NCBI GenBank assembly: GCA_036490475.1
Contig: DASXDT010000005.1
Span: forward strand, 310,001-374,000
DNA from: Candidatus Tumulicola sp.
Lineage (GTDB): Bacteria > Vulcanimicrobiota > Vulcanimicrobiia > Vulcanimicrobiales > Vulcanimicrobiaceae
Reading direction: 5' to 3'
DNA: 64,000 nt
Every line of letters starts with the position of its first letter. The first letter of the stretch is position 1. Of the stretch, positions 2,334 through 6,189 are shown one piece after another. Position numbers and translations under genes: made by a program. Below the pieces are notes generated by a model, which worked only from the letters and a program-made list of their open reading frames with translations, made no database searches and was not told where the DNA came from.

Positions 2334-3593
2334 TCAATCGTACGCTCCGCGTACGTACCAGTGCGCGCCCTGGCGATAAATACGATACAGTTCGCCGTCT
2401 TCGAGCAATACATCGTATTCGTCGCGCACCACATCGTGTTGAGGCCAACCGGTATCGATGCGCCACGGTCCGGCACATTCGAGCACCGCGCGCGGCGGAT
2501 CGCCGACCGATGCCGGCTCTCCGGCACGCAAACGCACGGCGATTTCCGCGACGGTCAGCAGCCGCAGTTGCGGTACGACCGTATCGGACGGTGCCGCCTC
2601 GGTCGCACCGCTTTGCAGTACCGTCCGTTTCGGTAACTCGAACCGATCGTACGAAAAGCGATCTTCGAGCGCGTGCGCTTCTTTGGTACGCGCGCGCTGG
2701 ACGGGGGTGCCGAGCACCGATTCGAGCCGAGCAATGGCAACCGCGACGGCTTGCGGATCGAGATCGTCGCCGGCCAGCAGCGCCAGCGCTTCCCCACCTT
2801 CTTCTAACCCGGCCGCTCGCACGCGCAAACCGACGATTGCGGCCGGAAACGTCGCGCCGTCGAGTTTCGCGCGCACGACGTCGAACATCGCACGTTCTTG
2901 CGCGGTCGGAGCGGCCAGCAATACGTCGAAGCGGTACGTCTGCGCGTCTTCCAACTCGAGCGACAATTCGAGCGCACCGGCGCGCCGCCCGCTGCGTTCT
3001 AGATCCGAAGCGATACGCGACAGTAACATCCGCAAGGCGAAAAATACCTGCGCTTCGTCTTCGGCACGCCCTTCACCGAATAACGCCGCTTCGATCGCCG
3101 CCGAATGTCCGCGCGGAACGAATGGTGTCGAATCGTCGCCACGAGCGAGCGCGTGCCATCGCGCCGATCGTGCCCCGAAACGACGCACGAACGGTCCGTG
3201 CGGAAGTTTGGCAAGATCGCCAAGACGTTCTACTCCCAACAATCGCAAGCGGTCGATCGCATCTTGGTCTACATCGAGCACGGCCAACGGTAACGGTGCC
3301 AGCATCGTGCGCTCCCGTCCCGCTGGAAAAATCGTTCCATCGTTTGTAAACGCCGCTCCGCGTGCGGCGATACGATTGCTGCCGGCGCCAAAACGGGCGC
3401 GGACGCCGGCACCCTCGAGCACCGTTCGGGCGTGCTCGATCCACTGGGGCGGCGTTCCCGGCATGCCGCGCATATCGATAAACGCGAGCCCCGGGCGAAC
3501 GTCGTCGATCAGCGGTGAGACGGCATCGAGCGCGTCGAGTGCGTCTTCCCACACAGCGACGTCGACCGGAATCGCTTCAACGCACAGCAGCAC
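2334..3593 (-). CDS. imuB: ImuB-like Y-family DNA polymerase homologue
   Basis: About 419 residues. The start is probably GTG at 3593 or GTG at 3602, giving CVEAIPVDVAVWEDAL as the first beta-strand and palm segment. The frame is open further upstream, but that part lies on top of imuA. The middle contains the helix-hairpin-helix-like stretch typical of Y-family enzymes (IDRLRLLGVERLGDLAKLP, near residues 150-170). A little-finger-like domain and a C-terminal accessory region follow. ImuB proteins are usually non-catalytic partners of ImuA and DnaE2 in SOS mutagenesis; the acidic palm residues look degenerate here (GLAFIDMRGM keeps one Asp). It directly follows and overlaps imuA by 17-26 nt, so the two are translated from one message under the LexA-type promoter at 4356-4384. 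No dnaE2 gene is visible in the window. Confidence 0.72.
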   Translation of the reverse strand: MLLCVEAIPVDVAVWEDALDALDAVSPLIDDVRPGLAFIDMRGMPGTPPQWIEHARTVLEGAGVRARFGAGSNRIAARGAAFTNDGTIFPAGRERTMLAPLPLAVLDVDQDAIDRLRLLGVERLGDLAKLPHGPFVRRFGARSARWHALARGDDSTPFVPRGHSAAIEAALFGEGRAEDEAQVFFALRMLLSRIASDLERSGRRAGALELSLELEDAQTYRFDVLLAAPTAQERAMFDVVRAKLDGATFPAAIVGLRVRAAGLEEGGEALALLAGDDLDPQAVAVAIARLESVLGTPVQRARTKEAHALEDRFSYDRFELPKRTVLQSGATEAAPSDTVVPQLRLLTVAEIAVRLRAGEPASVGDPPRAVLECAGPWRIDTGWPQHDVVRDEYDVLLEDGELYRIYRQGAHWYVRGAYD

Positions 3594-4347
3594 GGTGCAC
3601 ACGCTCGCGACGAATGGGACGATCTTGCGCCAGCACCCGCTCGCGTAATTGGGCACCCGCAAGCGCATCGATAGCATGCACGCGTGCGTACGCACCGGCG
3701 GCCGCGCGTTTATCTTTTCCGATCGACGCGCGCACGTCGTAGCCGGCGACCGTGCACCACGGACCGCGCGAGCCGTGCAGCACGACGCGCTCGAGCTCGC
3801 AGCGCAGCCGCACCGATGCGGCCGCGCCCAGTTCCGCACCGGCGCGCTCGGCGATTGCGACGAGCAATACACCGGAACGATGTGCGACGGCCGCCAGGCG
3901 CATCCAGGCCGCCGGCCGCAATGCGGGCGCGCCCATCAAAACCAAACGGCAGGCGCGCGAACGAATCAGAATGTCGGCCGCTCGTGCGATGCCTTTGGGG
4001 GTGGCCGCCGATACCACCATGAGCCGGTCGAGCCGGACGCCGGCTCGAACCAGATCCGGCGGATACAGCCCGCCATCGTCGATGACGGCGGCCAACGCCG
4101 TCCGGGTCACACCGGCCAGCGTACGAGCCAGAATGCTCCAGCGGCCGCTTCGCCCCTCGAGCGCGACCAAACCGGTGGGGAAACCGCCGCCCAACGCCCG
4201 GTCGAGCGCCGGAATCGAGGTGGGAACGGCGGCGGCAATTCGCAGTTGCGGTGCCGATGTGTGCCCTCCGGACAACGTGGCTTTGAGTGCGGAAAACGCC
4301 TCGCGGCGGTCCGCATCCGAGTCGGAATTCGTTCGATTCGGCGCCAT
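3577..4347 (-). CDS. imuA: ImuA-like RecA-fold protein of the SOS mutasome
   Basis: A 256-residue protein with a truncated RecA/SulA-like fold. IPALDRALGGGFPTGLVALE near residues 46-65 corresponds to the RecA entry into the P-loop, but the loop itself (EGRSGRWS) lacks the Lys-Thr of a true Walker A, as is common in ImuA proteins. The family acts with ImuB in lesion-bypass mutagenesis. The ATG at 4347 is preceded by a minus-strand TTGACA box, a 14-bp LexA-type palindrome and a weak -10, so SOS control is visible in the sequence. A 702-bp inverted-repeat element sits immediately upstream of that promoter. Annotation as ImuA rests on the fold, the small size and the imuB partner rather than on a unique motif. 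Confidence 0.68.
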   Translation of the reverse strand: MAPNRTNSDSDADRREAFSALKATLSGGHTSAPQLRIAAAVPTSIPALDRALGGGFPTGLVALEGRSGRWSILARTLAGVTRTALAAVIDDGGLYPPDLVRAGVRLDRLMVVSAATPKGIARAADILIRSRACRLVLMGAPALRPAAWMRLAAVAHRSGVLLVAIAERAGAELGAAASVRLRCELERVVLHGSRGPWCTVAGYDVRASIGKDKRAAAGAYARVHAIDALAGAQLRERVLAQDRPIRRERVHRAAVR

Positions 4348-4355
4348 GGGAGCAC

Positions 4356-4384
4356 AGCGTATCGAACACCTGTTCGTATGTCAA
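4356..4384 (-). promoter_or_regulatory. SOS promoter of imuAB with LexA box
   Basis: On the minus strand, TTGACA (4384-4379), a 17-bp spacer and TACGCT (4361-4356) form a sigma70-type promoter. The spacer contains CGAACACCTGTTCG (4363-4376), which fits the Gram-positive/actinobacterial LexA consensus CGAAC-N4-GTTCG. The start codon of imuA is at 4347, so the leader would be very short. The -35 hexamer lies wholly within the 9-bp target duplication of the adjacent element. Confidence 0.72.
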
Positions 4385-4386
4385 GG
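4378..4386. repeat. Left target-site duplication, ATGTCAAGG
   Basis: The nine bases ATGTCAAGG abut the outer end of the left inverted repeat. They recur in the same orientation at 5089-5097 abutting the right inverted repeat, as expected for a 9-bp staggered insertion. Confidence 0.85.
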
Positions 4387-4443
4387 GGCTTTGCCCATAA
4401 AACCTGGCTTGCCTAAAAAGCCAGCGGGTCTGCCCACAAAAAG
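4387..4443. repeat. Left terminal inverted repeat
   Basis: A 57-nt arm that pairs with 5033-5088 (reverse complement) except for T/G at the 19th base and one extra G after the shared GCCAGCGG. Confidence 0.85.
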
Positions 4444-4494
4444 GTCAGACTGACCCGGTGGGCTTGCCTTGCGTGCTAACCGAACCGCCCAGGT

Positions 4495-4815
4495 GTGAGC
4501 GCTGACGCAACAGCCGACGTTGTAGCCGCCCTGAGTATAGTAGGAGCGTTCGGAATTCTCGCAGCCCTAGGGGCTGTCTACCTTCGGTGGTGTCGCAAGA
4601 AATCTCGACGGCCCAGTTTCTTTGAATTCTTCGGCCTGCAATTGGCGGCTCAGTTCTTGCTGGCAGTCCTCGCTGGGGTCGTGTTCCTGCTAGTGCTAGG
4701 AGTCAACGCGCTACACTTAACCTGGCTGGGCGTAGTGATCGGCGTCGCCGCAATAGGAGTCATAATCGCAGTCGCCTGGCTATTGGCGGCGGCGCATCCG
4801 CGTAAGGCCCGATAG
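4495..4815 (+). CDS. Small predicted membrane protein inside the 702-bp element
   Basis: A 106-residue ORF with a GTG start. It has three likely transmembrane helices: residues about 8-30, 47-69 (LLAVLAGVVFLLVLGVNAL) and 75-98 (VVIGVAAIGVIIAVAWLLAA). A basic loop (RWCRKKSRRP) lies between the first two and a basic tail at the end. No family is recognised. Its last 55 codons overlap antisense with the minus-strand ORF at 4650-5000, so probably only one of the two is a functional gene. The strong alternation of hydrophobic helices and charged loops favours real coding, but there is no clear Shine-Dalgarno. Confidence 0.45.
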   Translation: MSADATADVVAALSIVGAFGILAALGAVYLRWCRKKSRRPSFFEFFGLQLAAQFLLAVLAGVVFLLVLGVNALHLTWLGVVIGVAAIGVIIAVAWLLAAAHPRKAR

Positions 4816-5000
4816 TTGTGAAAACGGCCGCCCTGCATCAACTCGGCTGCATCGATCCACGTCCCAGGCGTTATCAAATCCCAGAGAACTTCGCAGGTCT
4901 CGCTGCACCACATTGCGGCACCGCTAAGGAGCGCAGGCCCTTCGTAAATGACCAGCTCCGGACATACTGAGCACCGTCTGATCGAGAAAATCTGGTCCAC
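4650..5000 (-). CDS. Small cysteine-rich protein, possible zinc-binding, in the 702-bp element
   Basis: A GTG at 5000 is preceded by a perfect GGAGGT six bases upstream, one of the best ribosome-binding sites in the window. This gives a 116-residue protein. The N-terminal half has paired cysteines (RRCSVCPEL near residue 10, then MWCSETCEVLWDL about 22 residues later) that could bind one metal ion. The C-terminal half is Thr/Pro/Ala-rich and lies antisense to the membrane ORF, so the true gene may be shorter or decayed. No family is recognised. The name rests only on the cysteine spacing. Confidence 0.4.
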   Translation of the reverse strand: MDQIFSIRRCSVCPELVIYEGPALLSGAAMWCSETCEVLWDLITPGTWIDAAELMQGGRFHNYRALRGCAAANSQATAIMTPIAATPITTPSQVKCSALTPSTSRNTTPARTASKN

Positions 5001-5032
5001 GTTAACACCTCCGTAAAAGAGTATCAGTACCA

Positions 5033-5088
5033 CTTTTTGTGGGCAGACCGCTGGCTTTTTAGGCAAGCCCGGTTTTATGGGCAAAGCC
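5033..5088. repeat. Right terminal inverted repeat
   Basis: A 56-nt arm complementary to 4387-4443; its outer end reads GGTTTTATGGGCAAAGCC and directly abuts the second ATGTCAAGG. Confidence 0.85.
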
Positions 5089-5097
5089 ATGTCAAGG
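5089..5097. repeat. Right target-site duplication, ATGTCAAGG
   Basis: An exact copy, in direct orientation, of 4378-4386. Confidence 0.85.
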
Positions 5098-5187
5098 TTC
5101 CAGCCGGCGGTTTTGGTCCAGGAGTCCCGGTCTTATTAGCGCAGGAGCAAGGATCGGACCGATCGCTGCATTTGCGAAAGGATGCAT

Positions 5188-6189
5188 ATGTTACACCGAG
5201 CCCCATTTGCATTGTCTTTGGGAGCGGCCGCGGCGCTGTTGGCGGCGTGTCAGGGCAATCCAGCCGCCTCGTCGGGCGCACCGCCGGCGCTTTCCGCCGG
5301 CTCCTACGCGCACGACCGCTTGGGATCGTGGATCGCGCCGAACGCCCGCGCGGCATCGAGCTTACTGTACGTTTCGAACCTCAGAAGCAACGACGTTCGA
5401 ATTTACAGCTACGACGGGGGCGATCAGCACGAACTGATCGGAACGTTGAAAGGCTTCAAGCAACCGGCCGGCATGTGCACCGACAAATCCGGAAACGTGT
5501 ACGTGGTCGATAGCGGGGCGTATAGCGTCTACGAATACGCGCACGGACAAACTGCCCGTCTCCAAACCATCTCCGAACGCCCGTACGGCATTCCTTATTC
5601 GTGCGCCATCGATTTCCAGCACACCGGCGATCTGGCAATCGTCAATCAAGCCGATCGCAAGCGCCACCTCGTACCCAACGTGCGCGTCTATCGCGGCGGC
5701 TCCGGCGGCACGGGATACGAAGGCTTCGACAATACTGGCGACCTGCTGTGGTCGGCGTACGACGACAGCGGCACGTTATATGTCGATGGTTACGATAACT
5801 ACGGCATTCCGGCGCTCTTCGAACTACCAAAGCGCGGCGGAGCCTTCGGTGAAGTCGCCATTCACGGTGCCACCATTTCGACCCCGACGGGATTATCGTG
5901 GGTCAACCCAGCCCTTCTCATCGGCGACCAAGACTTTCAACGCAAGAACATTTCAGGGGCGTACAAGTTGAACGTGTACGGCGACCGTGCCGACGTCGTC
6001 GGAAAGCTGCCGTTCAAAGGCACGATCGACGTGCATGGATTCTGGCGCCGCGGCGACCGTTTGGTCGCGCCGGACGAAACCGAAAACAACGTTGCGATCT
6101 TCACCTTTCCGCAAGGTAAACCGTACGCGATTTTCAATAACGACGTTTCCAAACCGTTCGCGGCCACGATCAGTCAGTTCGGCAACTAA
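5188..6189 (+). CDS. Beta-propeller lipoprotein (NHL/SMP-30-like)
   Basis: 333 residues. ATG 5188 is chosen over the in-frame ATG at 5182 because AAAGGA (5177-5182) gives it normal spacing. The N-terminus is a lipoprotein signal (ALSLGAAAALLAAC, lipobox LAAC, Cys about residue 21). The rest consists of repeated blades with the pattern LYVSN...DVRIYSYDGG and GNVYVVDSGAYSVYEYAHG, typical of six-bladed propellers found in large families in some soil phyla. The ligand or reaction is unknown; the protein should sit on the periplasmic side of a membrane. It stands alone and ends before the bidirectional terminator at 6236-6265. Confidence 0.72.
   Translation: MLHRAPFALSLGAAAALLAACQGNPAASSGAPPALSAGSYAHDRLGSWIAPNARAASSLLYVSNLRSNDVRIYSYDGGDQHELIGTLKGFKQPAGMCTDKSGNVYVVDSGAYSVYEYAHGQTARLQTISERPYGIPYSCAIDFQHTGDLAIVNQADRKRHLVPNVRVYRGGSGGTGYEGFDNTGDLLWSAYDDSGTLYVDGYDNYGIPALFELPKRGGAFGEVAIHGATISTPTGLSWVNPALLIGDQDFQRKNISGAYKLNVYGDRADVVGKLPFKGTIDVHGFWRRGDRLVAPDETENNVAIFTFPQGKPYAIFNNDVSKPFAATISQFGN

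What the first reader, a model, noticed from the sequence alone, without database searches (positions are those of the whole stretch)
4378..5097. 702-bp element inserted exactly at the -35 box of the SOS imuAB promoter, which the target duplication preserves
The left TSD ATGTCAAGG, read on the minus strand, contains TTGACA with 17 bp to TACGCT and a LexA palindrome between. The insertion therefore split the sequence at the promoter edge but left a complete -35 copy on the imuA side. The element now supplies everything upstream of -35 and could change SOS induction of error-prone repair.
Basis: partly seen in the sequence, partly recalled or inferred. Interest (0 to 1): 0.8.

Follow-up and report, generated by a model that had tools for sequence, protein, structure and literature searches.

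The report
Cassette transposon parked at SOS promoter
A small transposase-less mobile DNA cassette sits two bases upstream of the DNA-damage-controlled promoter of the imuA repair gene in an uncultured bacterium, and its relatives land again and again at the same base pair just upstream of other regulated promoters, which suggests a mobile element that uses promoters as landing marks without breaking them.

Summary
Window 4387-5088 is a 702-bp element with ~57-bp inverted ends (96%) and a perfect 9-bp target duplication, ATGTCAAGG, which carries the -35 hexamer of the LexA-controlled imuA promoter. A congener (G108) has the empty site; 30/30 family imuA loci read share the promoter. Sequence upstream of -35 is not conserved, so altered SOS induction is untested and not favoured.

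The element is a non-autonomous cassette. Complete relatives encode a SWIM zinc finger plus DDE transposase, a sister of the IS903 group (IS5 family), with ends starting GGCTTTG and bearing three ~19-bp iterons, 9-bp duplications and cargo, including toxin-antitoxin-type genes.

The larger finding is where they land in Eremiobacterota. At ribBA, 9 of 78 promoters are occupied, tip 17 bp before TTGACA in eight and 18 in one. At argF, 7 of 30 are occupied, 10-11 bp before TTGCAT. One to three cases lie at groES, a multicopper oxidase, mntH and imuA. Duplications pair within genomes but differ between them, congeners are empty, and arrays grow at the same spot. Recurrent promoter-anchored insertion is the best reading; its mechanism is inferred. 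Partial precedent: E. coli IS5 at glpFK.

The parts
4378..4386 (.). left 9-bp target duplication ATGTCAAGG; contains the -35 hexamer of imuA on the minus strand
   Evidence: single copy in the empty site of G108
4387..4443 (+). left terminal inverted repeat, type A end: three iterons (TGCCCATAAAA / TGCCTAAAAAG / TGCCCACAAAAAG) in direct order at 18-21 bp spacing
5033..5088 (-). right terminal inverted repeat, also type A
5089..5097 (.). right 9-bp target duplication ATGTCAAGG
4379..4384 (-). -35 hexamer TTGACA of the imuA promoter
4363..4376 (-). LexA-type operator CGAACAGGTGTTCG (CGAACATATGTTCG in most relatives)
4356..4361 (-). -10 hexamer TACGCT
3577..4347 (-). imuA-like gene (256 aa)
2334..3650 (-). 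imuB-like Y-family polymerase ORF (start codon not determined)
4495..4815 (+). cargo ORF, 106 aa, hydrophobic (small membrane protein); no convincing relative in the phylum
4650..5000 (-). possible second cargo ORF (GTG at 5000, preceded by GGAGGT; CxxC and CxxxC motifs in its N-terminal part; its 3' half overlaps the 106-aa ORF)
   Evidence: sequence; no Pfam match
5182..6189 (+). divergent native neighbour, NHL-repeat protein; the element separates its 5' region from imuA

Best explanation
The 702-bp sequence is a non-autonomous cassette (two transposase-binding ends around small cargo ORFs, no transposase) of a family of cargo-bearing transposons moved by a SWIM-zinc-finger DDE transposase that is a sister of the IS903 group. 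It was inserted by cut-and-strand-transfer with a 9-bp stagger at the upstream edge of the LexA-controlled imuA promoter, so that the whole core promoter was kept and imuA most likely stays LexA-regulated. In Eremiobacterota this family is directed to the upstream edge of core promoters of regulated genes; new copies enter at the same promoter-relative position, duplicate the same 9 bp and push older copies upstream, giving arrays. Shown: element anatomy, empty site, family membership of the ends, association of the ends with the transposase, fixed positions at ribBA and argF, array structure. Inferred: that the transposase (or a partner bound at the promoter) reads the promoter, that the fixed position is targeting rather than selection, and that imuA expression is unaffected.
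For: Anatomy. Same end type around complete relatives with transposase and 9-bp duplications: L012 446-3641 TAAAACTCG, and further copies with 9/9 duplications in Eremiobacterota and other phyla. Transposase: SWIM plus DDE_Tnp_1, homologous to the IS903-group transposase of pSC101 (hhalign 98.6%, E 1e-15), same best NCBIfam model. Own genome keeps only a 76-aa transposase remnant inside a second element. ribBA: 9 of 78 promoters occupied within 60 bp, tip 17 bp before TTGACA in eight and 18 in one; reversed-motif control 0. argF: 7 of 30, tip 10-11 bp before TTGCAT. groES (CIRCE) tip 11 bp before TTGCAG...TAACAT; multicopper oxidase x3 and MntH-like x1, each 38 bp before TTAGGnnnnCCT. Independence: duplications pair 9/9 within G000, G038, G089, G102 and G116 and 8/9 in G108, yet differ between genomes, even between the two congeners G000 and G108; congeners G034, G088, G097 and G099 are empty. 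Arrays: G108 ribBA, G053 oxidase. Promoter core conserved in 30/30 imuA loci, upstream not.
Against: imuA is a single case and its offset (2 bp) differs from ribBA (17) and argF (10-11), so no one distance rule holds. Several other Eremiobacterota copies (G101, G124, G119, G079, G037) are not clearly at promoters. Across all 32 bacterial sites with exact duplications, the promoter signal is only modest (7 of 32 with a strong match at 0-20 bp versus 1-4 in other bins). No expression or transposition data exist; the genomes are largely metagenome-assembled.
Confidence: 0.7

Rival explanations
1. Random insertion plus selection: copies that break genes or promoters are lost, and the narrow strip just upstream of a core promoter is one of the few harmless places.
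For: All promoter cases keep the core promoter; IS insertions in dense genomes are generally filtered by selection (general knowledge).
Against: Selection defines a strip of tens of bp, not one base pair. Eight of nine ribBA tips are at the same base and the ninth is one base off; seven argF tips are within one base. Where both ends are known, six of seven asymmetric elements face the promoter with the same end type.
Confidence: 0.15
2. Structure-driven landing as described for E. coli IS5: DNA that melts under superhelical stress near promoters attracts the transposase, and bound repressors mask or unmask the site.
For: E. coli IS5 enters upstream of the glpFK promoter always at the same place and orientation, in a destabilised region, and GlpR or cAMP-Crp binding blocks it (PMC5493358). 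The targets here also have repressor-type operators (LexA, ArgR-like, CIRCE, TTAGG...CCTAA).
Against: The duplications at ribBA and argF are GC-rich and unrelated in sequence, which does not fit a melted AT-rich target; destabilisation energy was not computed here.
Confidence: 0.3
3. Vertical inheritance: the ribBA and argF elements are old insertions kept or lost in different lineages.
For: Several carriers at argF belong to one genus (g37); element ends at ribBA of G000 and G108 look alike.
Against: Duplication pairs are identical within but not between genomes, which an old insertion cannot keep; contents and lengths differ (420 to 7953 bp); congeners are empty.
Confidence: 0.1
4. The element acts as a regulatory insertion that raises or insulates SOS expression of imuAB.
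For: It supplies all sequence upstream of -35, and its left end can form terminator-like hairpins reading towards imuA (4 found, 1.1 expected).
Against: Upstream sequence is not conserved in relatives; no promoter-like site found in the element.
Confidence: 0.15

Closest known systems
IS903 group of the IS5 family
   Same: DDE transposase with Y-x2-R-x3-E-x6-K motif, homologous over the catalytic part; ends start GGCTTTG (IS903B IRL/IRR GGCTTTGTTGAATAAATC and 9-bp duplication CTCAGATGC in PMC10569121); 9-bp duplications.
   Different: Extra N-terminal SWIM zinc finger, ends of about 57 bp with three iterons, element length 0.4-8 kb with cargo; below the curated cut-off of the IS5_2 model that IS903 passes.
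Mobile insertion cassettes (MIC) and transporter IS (tIS)
   Same: IS-type ends around passenger genes, with (tIS) or without (MIC) a transposase; the window element is of the MIC type.
   Different: Described mainly for other IS families (my knowledge; term found in PMC3129680 and PMC2266710 abstracts); here with promoter-anchored positions and arrays.
E. coli IS5 at glpFK and flhDC
   Same: IS5-superfamily insertion upstream of a regulated promoter, same position and orientation each time at glpFK (PMC5493358).
   Different: 4-bp target, selected laboratory mutants within one species; here natural insertions at several genes in several genera, with 9-bp duplications.
Tn7 at attTn7
   Same: Insertion at a fixed distance from a conserved site that is itself not altered; oriented insertion.
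   Different: No TnsC/D/E-like genes recognised in the elements read; single transposase; many promoters instead of one gene end.
Mutator-like elements of eukaryotes
   Same: SWIM zinc finger, 9-bp duplication, long ends, captured genes, preference for 5' gene ends (my knowledge).
   Different: SWIM is N-terminal here; nearest bacterial relatives by sequence are IS5/IS903; resemblance only.

Membership tests
IS5 family, IS903 group | DDE transposase of the DDE_Tnp_1 type with YREK motif | tested here: met
   Pfam DDE_Tnp_1 E 1.5e-22; Y344 R347 E351 K358 invariant in A1, in relatives of the window element, which itself has no transposase
IS5 family, IS903 group | ends beginning GGCTTTG and 9-bp duplication | tested here: met
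   IS903B ends from PMC10569121
IS5 family, IS903 group | transposase above the curated cut-off of NCBIfam NF033579 | tested here: not met
   112.9-137.4 bits against cut-off 140; IS903-group protein 352 bits. Hence filed as a sister group, not a member
Mobile insertion cassette (MIC) | IS-type ends, passenger ORF, no transposase | tested here: met
   ORFs and family scans of 4387-5088; ends shared with autonomous relatives
Mobile insertion cassette (MIC) | mobilised in trans by a related transposase | not testable with these tools
   own genome shows only a 76-aa remnant of the transposase
MITE | short, non-coding, many copies | tested here: not met
   one copy in the genome; ORF of 106 aa
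Tn7-like transposon | dedicated target-selector proteins (TnsC/D/E) | tested here: not met
   none recognised among 20 cargo proteins scanned with Pfam; a distant form could be missed

The most novel reading that the evidence does not exclude
A widespread transposon family (bacteria and archaea) whose DDE transposase reads the upstream edge of a core promoter, perhaps through its SWIM domain or a bound host factor, and inserts at a fixed distance from it, so that regulated promoters act as attachment sites for growing arrays of cargo cassettes; the imuA insertion is one use of an SOS promoter as such a site.
Probability: 0.4. Interest if true: 0.82.

Novelty: new variant of a known kind. Interest (0 to 1): 0.6.

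Why it matters
If promoters are the attachment sites, this would be a prokaryotic counterpart of promoter-seeking transposons in eukaryotes: the element finds a place that is always present and does not kill the host. It would also give a natural, many-genome data set for the debated idea, raised by E. coli IS5 at glpFK, that regulatory proteins steer where insertion sequences land. For imuA itself the lesson is that a mobile element can sit two bases from an SOS promoter without touching its core.

Tried and rejected
(1) LexA-linked targeting: only one case, and none of the other 29 imuA loci read carries an element at the promoter. (2) One distance rule for all promoters: rejected, offsets 2, 10-11 and 17. 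(3) Consensus in the 9-bp duplication: none seen. (4) General sigma-70 enrichment over all phyla: only modest; many Chloroflexi and other duplications lie instead in the middle of palindromes (L081, L083, L088, L091, L094, L098, L129). (5) MITE: rejected, single copy. (7) Relatives of the 106-aa cargo protein: only weak matches (E 1e-4 or worse). (8) A crude longest-ORF gene caller outside Eremiobacterota was too unreliable to classify sites. (9) The G041 hit (27 bp) was not followed up and is treated as chance. (10) Literature searches for a SWIM-bearing IS5 relative or a promoter-targeting bacterial transposon found none beyond IS5/SIDD work; the library is partial.

Full report
1. Observation. 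The sequence at 4378-5097 is as described. The element proper is 4387-5088, 702 bp, with ends that match over 41 nt (98%) and 17 nt (100%) and a perfect 9-bp duplication ATGTCAAGG. On the minus strand the left duplication reads CCTTGACAT and carries the -35 hexamer; 17 bp downstream is TACGCT, and a LexA-type palindrome CGAACAGGTGTTCG fills the spacer. The tip of the element is 2 bp from TTGACA. The gene is imuA-like, followed by a Y-family polymerase ORF. LexA is encoded in the genome.

2. Empty site and promoter. The congener G108 has one CCTTGACAT followed by the same promoter (L013:4409-4440), and a near-identical promoter at L013:14118 in front of a gene whose start looks like a PHP-domain error-prone polymerase (gene identity by eye). 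In 30 of 30 imuA loci of the family (the window's own included) the -35, the CGAAC-N4-GTTCG box, the -10 region and the start codon lie in the same arrangement, while the DNA upstream of -35 differs freely. The insertion therefore replaced only unconserved sequence. That argues against, but does not exclude, an effect on SOS induction. The consensus scan found no promoter-like site in 4300-5200 (it also misses the imuA promoter, whose -10 is poor). It found four terminator-like hairpins (1.1 expected), three in the left end reading towards imuA, so some insulation is possible.

3. What the element is. BLAST and pattern searches found no second copy in the genome, but related ends in G108. L012:446-3641 is a 3196-bp relative with 9-bp duplication TAAAACTCG and a 408-aa protein with an N-terminal SWIM zinc finger and a DDE_Tnp_1 domain. 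Relatives of this protein occur in 23 of 149 genomes of the phylum and, by a collection scan, in Acidobacteria, Chloroflexi, Planctomycetes, Verrucomicrobia, Alphaproteobacteria and several archaea. In many of these loci the gene lies between ends that start GGCTTTG and are flanked by 9-bp repeats, which ties the ends to the transposase. Each end holds three iterons of about 19 bp. One end type has all three in direct order (A); the other has the inner two inverted (B). The iteron core differs between lineages but is shared within an element. The window element has two A ends and no transposase; the genome's only transposase trace is a 76-aa remnant in a second, 2179-bp element. It is best called a mobile insertion cassette.

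4. Relation to known families. The transposase is homologous to the IS903-group transposase on pSC101 (hhalign 98.6%, E 1e-15), shares the Y-x2-R-x3-E-x6-K motif and has the same best NCBIfam model, but at 113-137 bits it stays under the cut-off of 140 that the IS903-type protein passes with 352. A low-to-medium confidence model (mean pLDDT 70) matches Tn5 transposase best (E 6e-4). IS903B has ends GGCTTTGTTGAATAAATC and a 9-bp duplication (PMC10569121). I therefore file the family as a sister of the IS903 group, with SWIM domain, iteron ends and cargo as differences.

5. Where the family lands. The second element in the window's own genome lies upstream of ribBA, and so do elements in other genera. 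Among 78 ribBA promoters with usable upstream sequence, nine have an element tip within 60 bp of the -35: eight at exactly 17 bp before TTGACA and one at 18 (G038 counted at the copy next to its tip; its contig has an assembly gap there). A reversed-motif control gives none. The carriers belong to eight genera labels (g1, g2, g5, g6, g25, g32, g33, g35). Congeners G034, G088, G097 and G099 are empty. The duplications pair within a genome (9/9 in G000, G038, G089, G102, G116; 8/9 in G108) but differ between genomes, including between the two congeners G000 and G108, so these are separate events. At argF seven of 30 promoters have a tip 10-11 bp before TTGCAT; the ends in G059 and G061 are decayed and the far ends of most were not read, and G077 has a motif match at another offset that I do not count. 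One element lies upstream of groES with CIRCE, three upstream of a multicopper oxidase gene, one upstream of an MntH-like gene, the last four each 38 bp before a TTAGGnnnnCCT operator-like site. These are all promoters with repressor-type operators; the operator names are by sequence likeness only.

6. Arrays. In G108 ribBA the order is [element 2] GAGTCTGAA(t) [element 1] GAGTCTGAT ATATCACC TTGACA; in G053 three elements upstream of the oxidase share CGAGCAGCG. This is what repeated entry at one promoter-relative position would give. G048 shows GCCTCAGG GCCTCAGGT ATATCATC TTGACA without an element, which looks like an excision footprint of the G038-type insertion (suggestive only).

7. Mechanism. 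Shown are anatomy, empty site, family and positions. Inferred is that the strand-transfer complex is positioned by the promoter or by something bound to it. Selection alone can keep elements out of genes but does not explain single-base precision; vertical inheritance does not explain duplications that match within but not between genomes. Melting DNA under superhelical stress, with masking by repressors, is documented for E. coli IS5 at glpFK (PMC5493358) and is the strongest mechanistic rival or complement. imuA fits the pattern with its own offset, and one case cannot prove targeting there.

8. Cargo. Other elements carry a RosmerTA-like pair (RmrA E 9e-146, RmrT E 1e-56; L070), a PIN-like DUF5615 gene (L067), P63C-domain proteins (L068, L069) and several small membrane proteins. 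The window's 106-aa hydrophobic ORF has only weak matches; its function is unknown, and a small membrane toxin or effector is a guess.

9. Limits. The sequences are largely metagenome assemblies; gene identities rest on profile matches or, for L012 and dnaE2, on likeness; promoter positions are by sequence; outside Eremiobacterota the promoter link is not established.

Noticed in passing
L061:3729-5907 (own genome, contig 2:60728-62906): Second, degraded element of the same family in the window's genome, duplication GTGTCGCAC, 17 bp before TTGACA of ribBA, with membrane-protein ORF, 287-aa ORF and transposase remnant.
   Followed up: yes
L011:3366-3796, L062:2131-9733, L069:5917-5927, L071:2910-2920: Elements lie end to end separated by one 9-10 bp duplication (30-40 bp at one L062 junction): tandem arrays anchored at promoters.
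   Followed up: partly
L081, L083, L088, L091, L094, L098, L129: In Chloroflexi and other phyla the 9-bp duplication of these elements lies in the middle of GC-rich palindromes (REP- or terminator-like hairpins).
   Followed up: partly
L112, L123, L132, L141: In archaeal copies the duplication is followed directly by A-rich and TTTAAATA-like sequence resembling BRE/TATA boxes, so promoter-edge insertion may extend to archaea. Not tested statistically.
   Followed up: no
L070:4400-6180: Element carries an RmrA/RmrT (RosmerTA-type) toxin-antitoxin or defence pair.
   Followed up: no
G048 ribBA promoter (L259): GCCTCAGG-GCCTCAGGT-ATATCATC-TTGACA without an element: possible excision footprint.
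   Followed up: no
L080, L081, L083, L085, L088, L090, L094 and others: The iteron core changes from lineage to lineage (TGCCCATAAAA, TGTATCAAAAG, TGTGTAAAAAGT, TGATACGGAATT) while GGCTTTG at the tip stays: likely co-evolution of the binding domain and the ends.
   Followed up: no
about 30 bases left of window position 1 (contig 5:309970-309983): Another perfect LexA-type box CGAACGTATGTTCG near imuAB; its gene was not identified.
   Followed up: no
ribBA loci (e.g. L061:2270-3676): RibBA in this family has an N-terminal XRE-like helix-turn-helix and a conserved palindrome CTTGACAnnTGTnAAG over its -35: probably self-regulated riboflavin synthesis.
   Followed up: no
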